Source of the DNA: Propionispora vibrioides
GTDB lineage: Bacteria > Bacillota > Negativicutes > Propionisporales > Propionisporaceae
NCBI RefSeq assembly: GCF_900110485.1
Contig: NZ_FODY01000021.1
Span: forward strand, 1-64,000
DNA length: 64,000 nucleotides
Reading direction: 5' to 3'
Under the pieces are notes generated by a model. The model saw nothing but the letters and a program-made list of their open reading frames with translations, searched no databases and had not been told where the DNA came from. Numbering within the stretch: position 1 is the stretch's first letter; the number at the start of each line of letters is the position of its first letter. Shown piece after piece: positions 1,570 through 43,618 of the stretch. A program made the position numbers and the translations under genes.

Positions 1570-2898
1570 ATGCGAGTAAACAAAAAGTTAGTGCTAAGCC
1601 TGATTGCCGCCGGTATCTTGACGACCGGCACCGCCCTGGCTAATCCCTTCGACGATGTACCGAAAGGACACTGGGCTTATGACGCCGTGCAGAAGCTGGC
1701 CGATGCCGGTATTGCCGACGGGTACAATGACAACACCTTCCGTGGTGACCGGCCTATGACCCGGTACGAAATGGCTCAGGTGGTCGGCCGGGCTATTTCT
1801 CACGAAAAAATGGCCAACCAGGAGCAGAAAGCGTTGATTGACAAACTATCAGCCGAATATAGCGAGGAATTAAATAGTCTGGGCATTCGCGTAAACAATC
1901 TGGAAAAACAGACGGCCGGTGTAAAAGACCTGAAAATCAGCCATTGGTTCCAGACGGAAAATACCTATGGCAATACTACGGCCAAAGCCAACGATTCCAT
2001 GCATGAATACGAGCTGGAATACCGGATGACTTTTGAAAAGCAGATCAGTGACAAATTGTCTATCTTGCACCAATTGGAAACCAAAACCTACTGGGATGAT
2101 TTCAGCGCCCAAAACAATAACAACTTTGGCCGGGCCTATAACAACGGCAACCAGGAGAGTGTCTTCACCCGTCTGGCTTATGTGACCTATAAGCCGGATA
2201 CCAAGAACACCCTGAACTTCGGTAAAGAGGCCGTCTGGCTGGCCGGTGGCTTCCTGGGCGATGACTACCTGCGGGCCGTTGACTACACGACCAAGCTGGA
2301 CGATAAAACCAGTCTGCAGATGATCCATGGCCGGTATGAAACCAATGCCAACTGGCCGGGCTTGCAGGCGACAGTGGATGCCGGCGGCAATGTCAATTTC
2401 AGTCGCAGCACCCAGGATACCCAGATCAATTATGTCGGGATCAACTCCAAACTGGGTACGGTGGATGTAGGAGCTCATTACCTGACGGGTAATCACGCGC
2501 TGGCCAGCAATAAAGAAACTAAAATCCTTGCGGTAACAGCCGGCGCCAATTTGGGCGACAGCGGCGTCAACCTGTCGGGCGGTTTCGGCCGGAACAGCGA
2601 AGCCGATAAAGACAACGAAATGTATAAACTGCAGCTCTACAAAAAGCTGAATAAGACCGATGTATTCCTGCAATACTGGAAACAGGAAGCCAATATTGAT
2701 CTGCCGATCGAAAATGGCAACCATACCACCTTCTGGGGCGATGAATACAATAACTTCGGTCATAAGGGCTATCGCCTGATTCTCGGTCATCCGGTAAGCA
2801 CCAATTGCTATGCCGAAGCCTGGTACGGCGATTATAAAAACCTGAAAAGCGATGAGAAAGGGCAAAAATTCGGCTGGGATCTGACGTTTAGCTATTAA
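1570..2898 (+). CDS. SLH-domain outer-membrane porin (OmpM/Mep45-like)
   Basis: This 442-residue exported protein has a signal peptide ending near TALA. One S-layer homology domain follows at about residues 21-75 (NPFDDVPKGHWAYDAVQKLA, then TRYEMAQVVGRAI). A short coiled-coil segment is at about 85-115, and the rest, to about 442, is rich in aromatic and polar alternating residues and ends in a phenylalanine-tyrosine pair (FSY), as beta-barrel outer-membrane proteins do. In Negativicutes the SLH domain holds the outer membrane to peptidoglycan by binding cell-wall-linked polyamine, while the barrel is a diffusion channel. ATG 1570 follows GAGGAGAGAG; the ATG at 1549 lacks a ribosome-binding site. 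The gene is monocistronic, with its own promoter and terminator. A Selenomonas-type lysine decarboxylase at 42452 may supply the polyamine. Confidence 0.88.
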   Translation: MRVNKKLVLSLIAAGILTTGTALANPFDDVPKGHWAYDAVQKLADAGIADGYNDNTFRGDRPMTRYEMAQVVGRAISHEKMANQEQKALIDKLSAEYSEELNSLGIRVNNLEKQTAGVKDLKISHWFQTENTYGNTTAKANDSMHEYELEYRMTFEKQISDKLSILHQLETKTYWDDFSAQNNNNFGRAYNNGNQESVFTRLAYVTYKPDTKNTLNFGKEAVWLAGGFLGDDYLRAVDYTTKLDDKTSLQMIHGRYETNANWPGLQATVDAGGNVNFSRSTQDTQINYVGINSKLGTVDVGAHYLTGNHALASNKETKILAVTAGANLGDSGVNLSGGFGRNSEADKDNEMYKLQLYKKLNKTDVFLQYWKQEANIDLPIENGNHTTFWGDEYNNFGHKGYRLILGHPVSTNCYAEAWYGDYKNLKSDEKGQKFGWDLTFSY

Positions 2899-2991
2899 GC
2901 CCAGAGGTCTGGGATTCTCCGGCCTGTCAGCTACAAGCAAGTACACTCCATGGCAATTATCTCATACTGGAACCCCATACATGGCTAAAGG

Positions 2992-3031
2992 AAATGCGGC
3001 TGTCCCGTGACGGGCAGCCGCATTTCTTTTT
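2992..3031 (+). terminator. Terminator after the SLH porin gene
   Basis: AAATGCGGCTG plus CCCG pairs with CGGG plus CAGCCGCATTT, with one bulged T and a 3-nt loop. TTCTTTTT follows. Confidence 0.85.
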
Positions 3032-3101
3032 GGTAATAATTATTTATTGACAATTAACTATGGCAAGAATATAATATAGAAGTTGGTGTTACACAATACC
3101 T

Positions 3102-11463: not shown

Positions 11464-12711
11464 ATGAATACTGGCGGTGTTATTTTGGAAAAAGTGATGG
11501 AGCAGGGAAACAGTATATTCATTGAAGAGATCATCGAAAAAAAGCAAATTGAAACACAATTTCAGCCGATTTTGTCCGCGAAGAAAAACAAAGTTGCCGG
11601 CCTGGAGGCGCTGTCCCGGGGCTATCACGCAGCGGCAGGCTGGATCAGCCCGGTTACGCTATTTTCCCAGGCTGCCGCCGCCGGGCTTAGTCTGGAGCTG
11701 GACCGGCTGTGCCGGGCCAAAGCACTGGAGGCCTTTGCCGGTTTACATAGCGAGGAGTTGCTTTTTTTGAACATCGATACCGGCGTGATTGCCGCCGATA
11801 CGGTCGGGTCGAAGCATTTGCTGGAGGCGGTACAGGAAGCGGGGATCAAGCCGCAGCAAGTGGTTATCGAAATTGTTGAGGCCAAAGCGAGCGATGTGGC
11901 TGCTTTGAAACAATTTATCCATAATTATAAAGAGTACGGCTTTACCATCGCCATTGATGACATTGGCAACGGTTATTCCAATCTGGACCGGATTTTGCAG
12001 ATTAAGCCGGATATTTTGAAAATTGACCGCGGTTTGTGCCGGGATATTGGCAATGATTATTACAAGCAGGAAATATTCACCTCGTTGGTCAGCTTATCCC
12101 GGCGCATCGGAGCGCTGGTGGTGGCTGAGGGCGTGGAGACCAAGGAAGAGGTCATGATGAGCTTTGAGCTGGGGGCGGATTTGCTGCAAGGCTATTATTT
12201 TGCCAAACCGCAAAAACTAAACGGAGCGGTGACATACGCCAACGGGAGTATTTTCGCGGAGTTTAAAAAAAGCAAGATTGACAAAATACGGCAGGGCGTC
12301 AAACGGCAGCGGGTCTGCGAGTCGGTTATGACCTGTATGCTGCAGGTTCTGGAAGGCTGTGCCGCCGAGAATTTCAGCAAAAGGCTGCAGGCCCTGGCCG
12401 AACAGTATAACCATATGGAATACCTTTATATTGTCGATGCGGCCGGGGTGCAGGTAACCGACAGCATTTGCAGTTCCCGGCATCCGGCCTGTAAAAATCA
12501 TTCACTGTTTCAAGTAGCCGGCAAAGGGGCCGATCAGTCGTTAAAGGATTACTATTTGCATATGATGGCCGGCAAGGACTGCTATATCAGCGAACCCTAT
12601 CTGTCGCTGGCTACAGGCAACGTCTGCATCACCAGTTCGGCGGCCTTTACCGACCGGGAGGGGCGGCGCTTTATCGTCTGTGCCGATTTTGAACCGCGCA
12701 GTGATTTTTGA
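11464..12711 (+). CDS. EAL-domain c-di-GMP phosphodiesterase with C-terminal sensor domain
   Basis: This protein of about 415 residues has an EAL domain at about residues 30-265. The catalytic features are intact: E48-A49-L50 in GLEALSRG, NIDT near 103, IEIVEAKA near 138, the DD pair in AIDDIGNGYSNLD near 166, LKIDRG near 190 and VVAEGVET near 220. It should hydrolyse c-di-GMP to pGpG. The C-terminal 130 residues (YLYIVDAAGVQVTD, CKNHSLFQ, CYISEPYLS, ICITSS-type pattern) look like a Cache/YkuI_C-type sensor domain. The start is uncertain: ATG 11464 lacks a clear ribosome-binding site and ATG 11497 is an alternative. A c-di-GMP riboswitch occurs at 38753. Confidence 0.88.
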   Translation: MNTGGVILEKVMEQGNSIFIEEIIEKKQIETQFQPILSAKKNKVAGLEALSRGYHAAAGWISPVTLFSQAAAAGLSLELDRLCRAKALEAFAGLHSEELLFLNIDTGVIAADTVGSKHLLEAVQEAGIKPQQVVIEIVEAKASDVAALKQFIHNYKEYGFTIAIDDIGNGYSNLDRILQIKPDILKIDRGLCRDIGNDYYKQEIFTSLVSLSRRIGALVVAEGVETKEEVMMSFELGADLLQGYYFAKPQKLNGAVTYANGSIFAEFKKSKIDKIRQGVKRQRVCESVMTCMLQVLEGCAAENFSKRLQALAEQYNHMEYLYIVDAAGVQVTDSICSSRHPACKNHSLFQVAGKGADQSLKDYYLHMMAGKDCYISEPYLSLATGNVCITSSAAFTDREGRRFIVCADFEPRSDF

Positions 12712-28840: not shown

Positions 28841-29030
28841 GTCAAGTGAATGGCTGTTAGCCTGTGGTATTCGTCACCTTTACATGTTCAACCTACAAAT
28901 TTCTAAGGGAGTCTAACGGTAGCTCTGCTGTCAAGCCGCTATAAGTGGAAGGCAAAGGCCCTGCCCGGGACACCCACCTGCCAAAAGCGGGTTTTGAACA
29001 TCGCGGGAACGGTACTATGGGCTTTTATTT
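28841..29030 (+). ncRNA. ssrS: Probable 6S RNA
   Basis: The closing stem pairs AGCCTGTGGTATTCGT (from 28859) with ACGGTACTATGGGCT (29009-29023), using several G-U pairs. A second stem pairs ATGTTCAA (28884-28891) with TTGAACAT (28994-29001). The 3' side carries GGACACCCACCTG, close to the conserved 6S segment. The long imperfect rod with a large central bulge is the shape by which 6S RNA mimics an open promoter and binds sigma-A RNA polymerase. The length of about 180 nt fits. It stands alone, with a promoter upstream and a terminator at 29059. I recognised it from stems and short conserved blocks, not from a covariance search. Confidence 0.72.
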
Positions 29031-29198: not shown

Positions 29199-29363
29199 CT
29201 AGTGTAGTGGCACATTCACATTTCGCTAAATTACTTGTCTACATTTCCATCTGCGTCGTTGTCGTCAATCGGCGTAGGAACCACTATGCCTCACTTCTCC
29301 GCCTTGCAGATGAAAATGTATCCTGCGTCCTTTAGTTGAAATGTGAACATGTCACTACACTAG
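29199..29363. repeat. Palindromic repeat family R3, copy 1 (165 bp)
   Basis: The ends CTAGTGTAGTGGCACATTCA and TGTGAACATGTCACTACACTAG (last 20 bases shown in part) are inverted repeats. The interior is imperfectly self-complementary and non-coding. A second copy in the opposite orientation is at 38223-38389. Its right-hand CTAG is shared with the adjoining R2 copy. Confidence 0.88.
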
Positions 29364-29525
29364 TGCTCCACCAACTCTGAAACTACAATTTTTTCACGGA
29401 TCTTTTTCCGTAAGGCTTCGTTATCGTCGGCTTATCTATGTCCGATAGGTGCGCCTCCTCCGCCTTGCCTTACGAAAAAATCTCCGCAAATTTAATTTGC
29501 ACTTTCAAAGTTGATGGAGCACTAG
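29360..29525. repeat. Palindromic repeat family R2, full copy (166 bp)
   Basis: CTAGTGCTCCACCAACTCTG and TTTCAAAGTTGATGGAGCAC followed by CTAG-type end TAG form the terminal inverted repeats. The element begins in the same CTAG (29360-29363) that ends R3 copy 1. This implies that one element inserted at the border of the other. Confidence 0.88.
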
Positions 29526-38160: not shown

Positions 38161-38222
38161 TGGGCGACCTGGTGTCTTGTAACCCCTGAGACTAAATTGG
38201 CTGGCACGGAATTTTTCCAAGA

Positions 38223-38389
38223 CTAGGGGAGTGACACGTTCATATTTCAACTAAAGGACGCAGGATACATTTTCATCTGCAAGGCGGAGGAGTGAGGCAT
38301 AGCGCGGTTCCTACGCCGATTGACGACAACGACACAGATGGAAATGTAGACAAGTAATTTAGCGAAATGTGAATGGGCCACTACACTAG
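38223..38389. repeat. Palindromic repeat family R3, copy 2 (167 bp)
   Basis: The ends CTAGGGGAGTGACACGTTCA and AATGGGCCACTACACTAG are inverted repeats bounded by CTAG. The interior matches the reverse complement of the copy at 29199-29363 (ACTTGTCTACATTTCCATCT in that copy). Confidence 0.87.
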
Positions 38390-38492
38390 GGGAGTATGCT
38401 GACTGACGACAACGCAGTATTGTGGAAAATCTACCGCAAGAATAGTGCAGAATCAGGGTTACAAGGGACTAAAAAAGAATCGCTGAAACAGG

Positions 38493-38518: not shown

Positions 38519-38752
38519 TGATTATTATGCAGTCTGTTGGGCGTGCACAAAATAATTCCGATGATTCCTTCCAAGATACGGATAAAACGAGTATAATAAA
38601 ACATAGAAAGCGTAGATAATTGGCAAAAGAGAAATCTTTTTGTCGAATCACCGGCAGTAGGAGTCGGATTGCTTACTTTTTCTGGTGATTGTTCAGGCGG
38701 TGTCCGAAGTAAGCAGTTATGAAGTGATCATATAGATAACCTTATAAGCATT

Positions 38753-38855
38753 CTTTAGCAAACCTTTTTAAAGGAAGGGACGCAAAGCCATGGGTCTAAG
38801 GATGTAAATCTATGATAGCCAGGTTGCATAACGCACCGGCTTTTTTTGTTTTTTT
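38753..38855 (+). promoter_or_regulatory. Cyclic di-GMP-I (GEMM) riboswitch with terminator
   Basis: The aptamer (38753-38831) has the conserved blocks TAGCAAACC, GGGACGCAAAGCC, GGGTCTAAGG and TAGCCAGGTTGC, which identify the class I c-di-GMP riboswitch. The 3' block is reused. GCC-GGT-GC (38818-38827) can instead pair with GCACCGGC (38833-38840), directly before TTTTTTTGTTTTTTT. Binding of c-di-GMP would hold the 3' strand in the aptamer and prevent the terminator, so this looks like an ON switch. The next genes are a zinc-ribbon protein and an unknown protein. Confidence 0.93.
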
Positions 38856-38904
38856 ACCAGCCGCGAGGGAAGCTTGTTCCCCATATGATAAGGAGATGGA
38901 AACA

Positions 38905-39120
38905 TTGGCTGTAGGAAAATGTTCTTGTGGCAGCAAGCAGTATGAAGAGGTTGACATAACGCCGGCGGGGGCCCAGGAGAAGAGATCGTTCACCCGTTGC
39001 AAGCGCTGCGGCTTAGTTGTGGCGGGACAGGGAAACTGGCCGGAGGAAGAGGAGACCGGGCTGGTAAGCCATTGGGCAAGAGTCCTGCGGGATGGTATGG
39101 GCTCTATCCTGCGGGCATGA
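38905..39120 (+). CDS. Small zinc-ribbon-like protein under c-di-GMP riboswitch control
   Basis: This 71-residue protein has paired cysteines CSCGS (near residue 5) and CKRCGLVV (near 31), the pattern of a zinc ribbon. A polar C-terminal tail with two Trp follows. I place the start at TTG 38905, 9 nt after AAGGAG (38890-38895). The ATG at 38896 abuts that site, and the frame from 38812 lies in the riboswitch. The function is unknown. Its position behind an ON-type c-di-GMP riboswitch suggests a role in surface attachment, matrix or motility control. Confidence 0.7.
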   Translation: MAVGKCSCGSKQYEEVDITPAGAQEKRSFTRCKRCGLVVAGQGNWPEEEETGLVSHWARVLRDGMGSILRA

Positions 39121-39412
39121 TCGCCCGGATTTGGACAAGGGGACGGTTCAGGCGATTCTCATGAACTGCTGCAGAAATCAGTGGCCAGGGCAGCTTTGCC
39201 AGTGGGCAGGCTGAGTCTTAGTGTAGCAGGAAAACGGCAGCAAACAGGGAACTATTACTAGTGGTCCATTAACATGGGCCATGCTGTTAGTTTGAAAACA
39301 TACCTGAAGCAAACGGATACTTAGCCTGTCTGTTTGTGCCGGACTTTTCCGGTCCGGCTGTGGTGGGGGCTGAATCAGCGGTTCCCCGGGAAAATCAAAG
39401 GAGATGGATAGC
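39121..39412. other. Interval between the zinc-ribbon gene and the next gene
   Basis: No gene, terminator or promoter is clear in these 290 bp. GTTAGTTTGAAAACATACCT near 39287-39306 resembles GTTTGAAAACATACCCC in the R5 repeat at 42150. Confidence 0.4.
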
Positions 39413-40087
39413 TTGGATATGCCTGCGATAATACAGGATGCGTTCAGCAGCGGTTTCTCGCTGCCGTCGGCGGCCAGCGCGGTGCCGGACATGACGCAGA
39501 CAGTTGCTACAATAAAGGAAGTATGGGATGCACAAACTTTTTCCGACCTGGTCAGCGGACAGGTCCACGTACCGGATGATGTGATCAATCAGGCGCTGGC
39601 CTCAATGCTGGAGCCCGGCGGACCGGTTACGGAAATGAAGGTTACCTCGCTAAAAAACCACCAGCTTAGAATTGAAGCGAAGACGGCCAAGGAAGGGCGG
39701 GTCGTGCTGGTCTGCACGGTGGAGCAATTAGTACATAATCAGGATCAGTCGTTGCTAACACTGAAGGTAACCGATAAAAAGCTGCCGGACAAGCCTTTCG
39801 TGTCATGGATTTTTTCCCGGGTCAGTCTGGCGATGGTGAGCAAGGTTGTGGGACACCTGGATCCCTCTTACGGGTTAGATGTCAATATTCATGGGAATAC
39901 TGTCACCATTGATTTTCGTCAGGCGCTATACAATTCCCGGCTTGGCAATTTGGAACTGTTCGGTTACCGGCCGGTGGATTATCTTACCGTGTATTCGCTT
40001 ACGCCGCAGGACGGCTTTTCCGATATCAGCACTAACCTTGCGTTGCCGGAGCAGATAAAAACAATGATTAAAAATGTTTGGTTATAG
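39413..40087 (+). CDS. Protein of unknown function downstream of the zinc-ribbon gene
   Basis: This 224-residue protein has no signal peptide. It contains beta-rich segments ([64 protein letters not shown]), resembling a lipid-binding or DUF-type beta barrel, but I assign no family. I place the start at TTG 39413, 9 nt after AAGGAG. The ATG at 39404 abuts that site, just as in the zinc-ribbon gene, and this shared layout supports both TTG starts. No terminator lies between the two genes, so it may also be under the riboswitch. Confidence 0.7.
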
Positions 40088-42451: not shown

Positions 42452-43618
42452 ATGGAAAAAACATTCAAATTGTCCCAGACGGCAGTGGAAAGGCTGGCGG
42501 AGAGTTATGGGACGCCGCTCTTAATTCTGTCGTCAGAGCAGATTAAGCGAAATTACAATATGCTGGCAGAATATCTGCCGGGAGTACATCTGTATTATGC
42601 AGTTAAATCAAATCCTAATGAGACTATTGTCCGGACACTGGCAGAGCTAGGATCCTGCTTCGATGTGGCTTCAGATGGCGAGATGCAGGCGCTGACCGCC
42701 ATGGGTATTGAACCGCATCGCATGGTTTATGCGAATCCTGTTAAGACGGCAGGCGGGCTGGCTACGGCCAGATGTACCGGTATAAATAAATTTACCTTTG
42801 ACAGTGAAAGTGAAATTGGCAAGATGGCCAAGGCTGTGCCCGGCGGTGCGGTACTGCTCCGGATACGGGTGGACAACCCCAAGGCGTTGGTCGATTTGAA
42901 TAAAAAGTTTGGTGCCCATCCCGATGATGCCCTGCGTTTGTTGCGGCTGGCCCGGGAGCAGGGACTGGATGTGGCCGGGCTATGCTTCCATGTTGGCAGC
43001 CAGTCGGTCAGCTCCGAAGCGTATTACGATGCGCTTAGAATTTGCCGCCGCTTATTTGATCAGGCGGCAGCCGAGGGCTTTAACCTGCGGGTCCTGGACA
43101 TCGGCGGCGGGTTCCCCATCCCGGCCCTTAACGAAACAATTGATATTCCCGGCATTCTTACCGAAATCAACACGGGGGTCCAAAAATATTTCCCCCACAC
43201 CGAAATTTGGGCTGAACCGGGCCGTTTTATCTGCGGCACAGCAATGAATCTTATCACCCGGGTCATTGGCACCCAGGAACGTAACCATCAGCAATGGTAT
43301 TTCCTGGATGACGGCCTGTATGGAACTTTTTCGGCTGTGATTTTCGATCACTGGGAGTTTGAACTGGAAACCTTTAAAAAGGGTGAACTCATTCCGGCCA
43401 CCTTTGCCGGTCCGAGCTGTGATTCCCTGGATATCATGTTCCGGGACAAGCTGACGCAGCGGCTGGAACTGGACGATCTTATCCTGGTGCCCAACTGTGG
43501 TTCCTATACTTCGGCTTCGGCTACCGTATTCAACGGTTTTGCCAAGACGCCGATCATTGTCTGGGAAGAAGTGCAGCACTTGTTTGATGCTTCCGAACAA
43601 CTGGCGGCGGCCGTCTAA
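42452..43618 (+). CDS. ldc: Lysine/ornithine decarboxylase, PLP fold type III
   Basis: This 388-residue enzyme closely resembles the Selenomonas ruminantium lysine/ornithine decarboxylase, which makes the cadaverine or putrescine linked to peptidoglycan. The PLP lysine is K52 (YYAVKSNPNE). Other motifs are CFHVGSQS (about 178-185), DIGGGFP (about 216-222), EPGR (255-258) and the catalytic Cys323 (GPSCDSLD) from the partner subunit, plus NCGSYTSASATVFNGF. The decarboxylase acts on L-lysine and L-ornithine in the cytoplasm. ATG 42452 follows GGTAGGAGAGG. The SLH porin at 1570 is the protein type that binds the resulting wall polyamine. Confidence 0.88.
   Translation: MEKTFKLSQTAVERLAESYGTPLLILSSEQIKRNYNMLAEYLPGVHLYYAVKSNPNETIVRTLAELGSCFDVASDGEMQALTAMGIEPHRMVYANPVKTAGGLATARCTGINKFTFDSESEIGKMAKAVPGGAVLLRIRVDNPKALVDLNKKFGAHPDDALRLLRLAREQGLDVAGLCFHVGSQSVSSEAYYDALRICRRLFDQAAAEGFNLRVLDIGGGFPIPALNETIDIPGILTEINTGVQKYFPHTEIWAEPGRFICGTAMNLITRVIGTQERNHQQWYFLDDGLYGTFSAVIFDHWEFELETFKKGELIPATFAGPSCDSLDIMFRDKLTQRLELDDLILVPNCGSYTSASATVFNGFAKTPIIVWEEVQHLFDASEQLAAAV

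What the first reader, a model, noticed from the sequence alone, without database searches (positions are those of the whole stretch)
38753..40087. c-di-GMP ON riboswitch controlling a tiny zinc-ribbon protein and an unknown protein
The aptamer is a clear class I c-di-GMP riboswitch whose 3' strand is shared with a terminator. The first downstream gene is a 71-residue C-x-C/C-x-x-C protein and the second a 224-residue protein of no known family. Neither is a usual member of the c-di-GMP regulon (flagella, pili, exopolysaccharide), so they may be undescribed effectors. An EAL phosphodiesterase at 11464 could lower the signal.
Basis: partly seen in the sequence, partly recalled or inferred. Interest (0 to 1): 0.72.

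Follow-up and report, generated by a model that had tools for sequence, protein, structure and literature searches.

The report
c-di-GMP riboswitch controlling tiny zinc protein
A standard RNA sensor for the bacterial signal c-di-GMP sits in front of a gene for a tiny, uncharacterised zinc-binding-type protein; the same sensor-gene pair recurs in four bacterial genera, so the small protein is probably a real but undescribed output of this signal, whereas the larger protein after it probably is not.

Summary
The riboswitch is real: window 38747-38831 matches Rfam c-di-GMP-I at 70.4 bits (cut-off 35). A terminator (38817-38841 plus T-run) uses the aptamer's 3' strand as its 5' arm, so the predicted logic is ON. 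The first gene (38905-39120, TTG start, 71 aa, CxC...CxxC) belongs to a small family in 19 of 380 Negativicutes genomes. Every member of one subgroup (7 of 7 loci, four genera, different neighbourhoods) has a c-di-GMP-I aptamer 43-74 nt upstream with the same terminator overlap; none of the 13 other loci does. The riboswitch-zinc-gene pairing is therefore conserved, and the zinc protein is a credible member of the c-di-GMP regulon with no described family. The second half of the reading does not hold: the 224-aa protein is a widespread single-copy Negativicutes protein (104 of 227 good genomes). Its relatives lack the riboswitch in 19 of 20 loci examined, the exception being the syntenic sister species, and in a congener it sits at the same place without zinc gene or riboswitch. 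ON switching, metal binding and function remain inferred. New target family for a known riboswitch class; moderate interest.

The parts
38747..38831 (+). c-di-GMP-I (GEMM-I) riboswitch aptamer
   Evidence: Rfam RF01051, 70.4 bits, E 9e-12, model 1-87 of 87; one base differs from the sister species in the core from about 38757 on
38817..38855 (+). Intrinsic terminator (stem 38817-38841, T-run after it) whose 5' arm is the aptamer's 3' strand (expression platform)
   Evidence: ViennaRNA -9.9 kcal/mol, 15-nt overlap with aptamer; equivalents with 15-18 nt overlap and -13.6 to -26.5 kcal/mol in six relatives
38890..38895 (+). Shine-Dalgarno AAGGAG, 9 nt before the TTG start
   Evidence: read directly from sequence
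38905..39120 (+). 71-aa Cys4 (CxC...CxxC) small zinc-ribbon-type protein, riboswitch-linked subgroup
   Evidence: translation, family alignment A1 with 12 invariant columns including the four Cys, family distribution
39413..40087 (+). 224-aa conserved Negativicutes protein of unknown function; neighbour, probably not a conserved riboswitch target
   Evidence: present in 124 of 300 class genomes, nearly always one match; riboswitch upstream only in own genome and sister species

Best explanation
A class I c-di-GMP riboswitch works as a transcriptional ON switch for a one-gene unit encoding a 71-aa Cys4 zinc-ribbon-type protein. Without ligand, the aptamer's 3' strand (AGCCAGGUUGC) pairs forward into a terminator and the transcript stops before the gene. 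With c-di-GMP bound, that strand is held in the aptamer, the terminator cannot form, and the small protein is made. Aptamer, overlap and conserved pairing with this protein subgroup are shown computationally; ligand response and direction are inferred from the anatomy. The protein most likely acts as a small cytoplasmic adaptor or regulator, binding a protein or nucleic acid through the ribbon and perhaps through an amphipathic C-terminal helix; this step is inference only. The 224-aa gene 283-292 nt downstream is most likely transcribed independently, with at most read-through from this unit.
For: Rfam match. Terminator overlap of 15-18 nt in all seven loci, with the terminator hairpin in the ligand-free MFE fold of each. 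All seven riboswitch-linked zinc genes fall on one side of a tree branch, though support is only 69/70; 0 of 13 other family loci has an aptamer upstream. The four genera belong to four families and the loci have different neighbours. In G142 the zinc gene follows an MCP gene that has its own riboswitch. The genomes carry only 4-16 such aptamers each. The same ON mechanism (aptamer and terminator mutually exclusive) is described for the closely related pilM riboswitch (PMC9262584). For the 224-aa gene: 19 of 20 other loci lack the aptamer, and congener G003 has the gene at the same site without it.
Against: No experiment. Most class I c-di-GMP riboswitches tested in C. difficile are OFF switches (PMC6200980), so the class alone does not give the sign. 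The window's own terminator is the weakest of the seven (-9.9 kcal/mol). Metal binding is inferred only from four invariant Cys; Pfam zinc-ribbon matches of the window protein are below cut-offs. No solid terminator was found between the zinc gene and the 224-aa gene, so read-through in this species is not excluded. The structure model of the small protein is weak and had no significant fold match.
Confidence: 0.78

Rival explanations
1. The riboswitch controls a two-gene operon: zinc protein plus 224-aa protein act together as c-di-GMP outputs.
For: Same strand and order in own genome and sister species G002; no strong terminator between them; similar ribosome-site arrangement at both starts.
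Against: The 224-aa protein is in 124 of 300 class genomes, while the zinc family is in only 18 of 300; its relatives have no riboswitch in 19 of 20 other loci; the other zinc genes with riboswitches lie elsewhere with no 224-aa neighbour. The gap between the genes is over 280 nt and holds a promoter-like site at 39292-39321, though such sites are not clearly more frequent than chance.
Confidence: 0.17
2. The switch is OFF: ligand binding favours termination, as in most C. difficile class I riboswitches.
For: OFF is the rule for the tested class I switches in C. difficile (PMC6200980).
Against: The terminator needs the aptamer's own 3' strand in all seven loci, so bound aptamer and terminator exclude each other, as in the ON switch pilM (PMC9262584); in the OFF switch Cd1 the two can coexist.
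Confidence: 0.06
3. The ligand is 3',3'-cGAMP rather than c-di-GMP.
For: cGAMP-type members of GEMM-I are highly similar and were first annotated as another class (PMC9262584).
Against: The selectivity position (G20 of Vc2; the G20A variant was crystallised with cGAMP, PMC6274999) appears to be G here and in the six relatives; the mapping of Vc2 numbering onto this alignment is from memory.
Confidence: 0.05
4. The small protein is an electron carrier or iron-binding rubredoxin-like protein of CSL zinc-finger type rather than an adaptor.
For: CxC...CxxC spacing and the CG / CGLV context resemble the CSL zinc finger; 9 of 18 family members match PF05207 weakly, best E 9e-4.
Against: The window protein is far below the curated cut-off (12.9 against 29.2 bits); the TFIIB-type ribbon matches as often (10 of 18); no redox partner gene is conserved next to it.
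Confidence: 0.15

Closest known systems
c-di-GMP-I (GEMM-I) riboswitch, RF01051
   Same: Full-length aptamer match well over cut-off; class found several times per genome in this lineage
   Different: Controls a zinc-ribbon-type protein family not linked to it in the literature searched
pilM GEMM-I ON riboswitch (PMC9262584)
   Same: Terminator built from the aptamer's own 3' strand, so aptamer and terminator are mutually exclusive
   Different: pilM senses cGAMP and controls a pilus gene; here the selectivity base appears to be G and the target is a small zinc-type protein
CSL zinc finger (Pfam PF05207)
   Same: CxC ... CxxC cysteine spacing with a similar Gly/Leu context
   Different: Weak matches only, best E 9e-4 in the family; 12.9 bits for the window protein; bacterial, about 70 aa, with an extra C-terminal tail
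TFIIB zinc ribbon (PF08271)
   Same: CG...CxxCGLV-like pattern, weak match in 10 of 18 members
   Different: First pair is CxC, not CxxC; best E 0.002, window protein below cut-off; no TFIIB core
ECs_2282 family putative zinc-binding protein (NCBIfam NF047912)
   Same: Short Cys-rich protein, weak match in 6 of 18 members
   Different: Best E 0.0018; window protein 12.9 bits against cut-off 37

Membership tests
c-di-GMP-I riboswitch (RF01051) | Covariance-model score above gathering threshold over the full aptamer | tested here: met
   70.4 bits against 35, model 1-87
c-di-GMP-I riboswitch (RF01051) | Expression platform coupled to the aptamer | tested here: met
   Terminator shares 15 nt with the aptamer; 15-18 nt in six relatives
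c-di-GMP-I riboswitch (RF01051) | Binds c-di-GMP and changes termination | not testable with these tools
   Needs in-line probing or transcription assays
CSL zinc finger (PF05207) | Score over the Pfam gathering cut-off | tested here: not met
   Window protein 12.9 bits against 29.2
CSL zinc finger (PF05207) | CxC ... CxxC metal site | tested here: met
   Cys 6, 8, 32, 35 invariant in 18 members; that CSL fingers have this spacing is from general knowledge
TFIIB zinc ribbon (PF08271) | Score over cut-off with CxxC...CxxC | tested here: not met
   14.7 bits against 29; first pair is CxC
LmeA-like phospholipid-binding (PF11209), for the 224-aa protein | Score over cut-off | tested here: not met
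   12.8 bits against 27.3, E 0.12; no family member matched it at E 0.1

The most novel reading that the evidence does not exclude
The zinc protein founds an undescribed family of small c-di-GMP output proteins: a riboswitch-controlled Cys4 adaptor, split from a paralogous riboswitch-free subgroup, that carries the high-c-di-GMP state to a target such as a chemotaxis, transcription or cell-envelope component in Negativicutes.
Probability: 0.45. Interest if true: 0.55.

Novelty: new member of a known kind. Interest (0 to 1): 0.42.

Why it matters
Known c-di-GMP riboswitch targets are mostly motility, chemotaxis, pili, adhesins and turnover enzymes. A tiny metal-site protein that keeps its own ON-type riboswitch across four genera, in unrelated genomic places, points to an output of the signal that seems not to have been assayed, and it is small enough to test by deletion, tagging and pull-down. 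The two-subgroup pattern (with and without riboswitch, both present in this genome) offers a built-in comparison.

Tried and rejected
Operon of zinc gene and 224-aa gene: rejected as a conserved feature. Homologues of the zinc protein in viral contigs or plasmids: none. Spread outside Negativicutes: one borderline match (E 6e-4) among 398 genomes drawn from the phylum, treated as chance. Solved-structure search with both family profiles: nothing significant. Structure predictions: mean pLDDT 49 for the 224-aa protein (three-row alignment) and 67 for the zinc protein (single sequence); fold searches gave no match at E 0.001, so no fold is claimed. Richer alignments made from genome-search loci were not handed to the structure tool, because its stated rule does not name that source. 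LmeA-like assignment of the 224-aa protein: rejected, below cut-off. Literature: no paper in the library links c-di-GMP riboswitches with zinc ribbons, Negativicutes or Sporomusa by the terms used. Promoter of the leader: several TATAAT-like boxes upstream, none decisive. Laying the whole genome in the Python box was not available.

Full report
What is there. Rfam finds a full-length class I c-di-GMP aptamer at 38747-38831 (+), 70.4 bits against a cut-off of 35. Inside its 3' end a hairpin begins, AGCCAGGTTGCATAACGCACCGGCT (38817-38841), followed by a long T-run. Its 5' arm is the aptamer's own 3' strand, 15 nt shared. Shuffling only the 9 nt between aptamer and T-run gave an equally stable hairpin in 1 of 60 tries; in the six relatives 0 of 60 each.

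First gene. A TTG codon at 38905, 9 nt after AAGGAG, opens a 71-codon frame ending at 39120 with cysteines 6, 8, 32 and 35. Family alignment A1 (18 members) has 12 invariant columns, among them all four cysteines. Between this genome and its sister species the frame shows 11 synonymous and 4 non-synonymous codon changes, as expected of a translated gene under some constraint. It reaches no curated family; weak matches go to the CSL zinc finger (CxC...CxxC), the TFIIB ribbon and a putative zinc-binding family. Metal binding is therefore an inference.

Distribution and pairing. With a profile the family is found in 19 of 380 Negativicutes genomes (one of the 19, G332, is a borderline and probably chance match) and, apart from the window genome, in one borderline case among 398 genomes drawn from the phylum. 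Twenty loci were examined. Seven have a c-di-GMP-I aptamer ending 43-74 nt before the start codon: own genome and sister species, G118 and G142 (one genus), G040, and G086 and G053 (one genus). On a protein tree these seven form one side of a branch, one change of label, with modest support 69/70. The other 13, including a second copy in this same genome (contig 2), have none. In all seven the terminator overlaps the aptamer by 15-18 nt. Neighbourhoods differ, and the zinc gene appears to stand alone. In G142 it follows an MCP gene that has its own riboswitch. With 4-16 aptamers per genome, such pairing by chance is very unlikely; but related genomes are not independent, so it is best read as an old pairing kept while the location changed.

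Second gene. The 224-aa protein (TTG 39413; relatives begin M-D-M-P) is in 124 of 300 genomes of the class, nearly always with one match. No aptamer lies near 19 of 20 other copies examined; the exception is the sister species with the same gene order. In congener G003 the gene follows the same upstream gene with neither zinc gene nor riboswitch between. In many genomes it has other neighbours. It begins 283-292 nt after the zinc gene's stop, in a stretch without a clear terminator or promoter. It is most likely an independent neighbour; read-through in this species cannot be excluded. Its family and fold remain unknown.

Mechanism. Bound aptamer and terminator need the same strand, so ligand should prevent termination: an ON switch, as described for pilM, where the two are mutually exclusive, and unlike Cd1, where they can coexist (PMC9262584). 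In C. difficile most class I switches are OFF (PMC6200980), so the sign rests on the anatomy here, not on the class. The base that sets c-di-GMP against cGAMP preference appears to be G (position mapped from memory; G20A variant with cGAMP, PMC6274999). The role of the small protein is not shown; a short amphipathic stretch in the C-terminal tail of many members and the ribbon-type cysteines suggest a binding or adaptor role, with redox or metal carriage as the main alternative.

Context. Own genome: eight aptamers, the others before a GGDEF protein, two MCPs, a V4R-domain protein followed by a sensor protein, a tandem pair before a secreted TPR protein, and one before proteins without a Pfam match. 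In relatives too, the genes after such aptamers include several MCP-like proteins. This is the usual c-di-GMP regulon, which makes the zinc protein the odd member. The EAL protein at 11464 is real, but nothing ties it to this unit in particular.

Verdict. Observation confirmed. Interpretation supported for the riboswitch and zinc gene, not for the 224-aa gene. Known riboswitch class, undescribed target family, function inferred.

Noticed in passing
window 38222-38391 and 29199-29364 (-): A dispersed intergenic repeat of about 170 bp; the 321-base query has 37 matches in the genome and 28 in the sister species. About 300 bp here (38178-38478) are absent at the same site in the sister species, so it looks like a mobile or MITE-like element.
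   Followed up: partly
G000:C10:42891-42975 and 43150-43234 (L003, L005): Two c-di-GMP-I aptamers in tandem before a secreted TPR protein in the same genome.
   Followed up: no
L001:1501-1587 and 1641-3086: A c-di-GMP-I aptamer directly before a GGDEF protein, suggesting feedback control of c-di-GMP synthesis.
   Followed up: no
window 39118-39160: An inverted repeat right after the zinc gene's stop, a perfect 11-bp match in the sister species, without a T-run; possibly an mRNA-end element (read by eye).
   Followed up: no
L031, L033, L034, L035, L036 (orthologues of the 224-aa gene): In several Negativicutes the 224-aa gene sits between the same two genes, a Cys-rich protein and a protein of about 490 aa with a PHDxRPIS motif, a conserved three-gene set of unknown role.
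   Followed up: no
window 28856-29027: 6S RNA, 78.4 bits.
   Followed up: no
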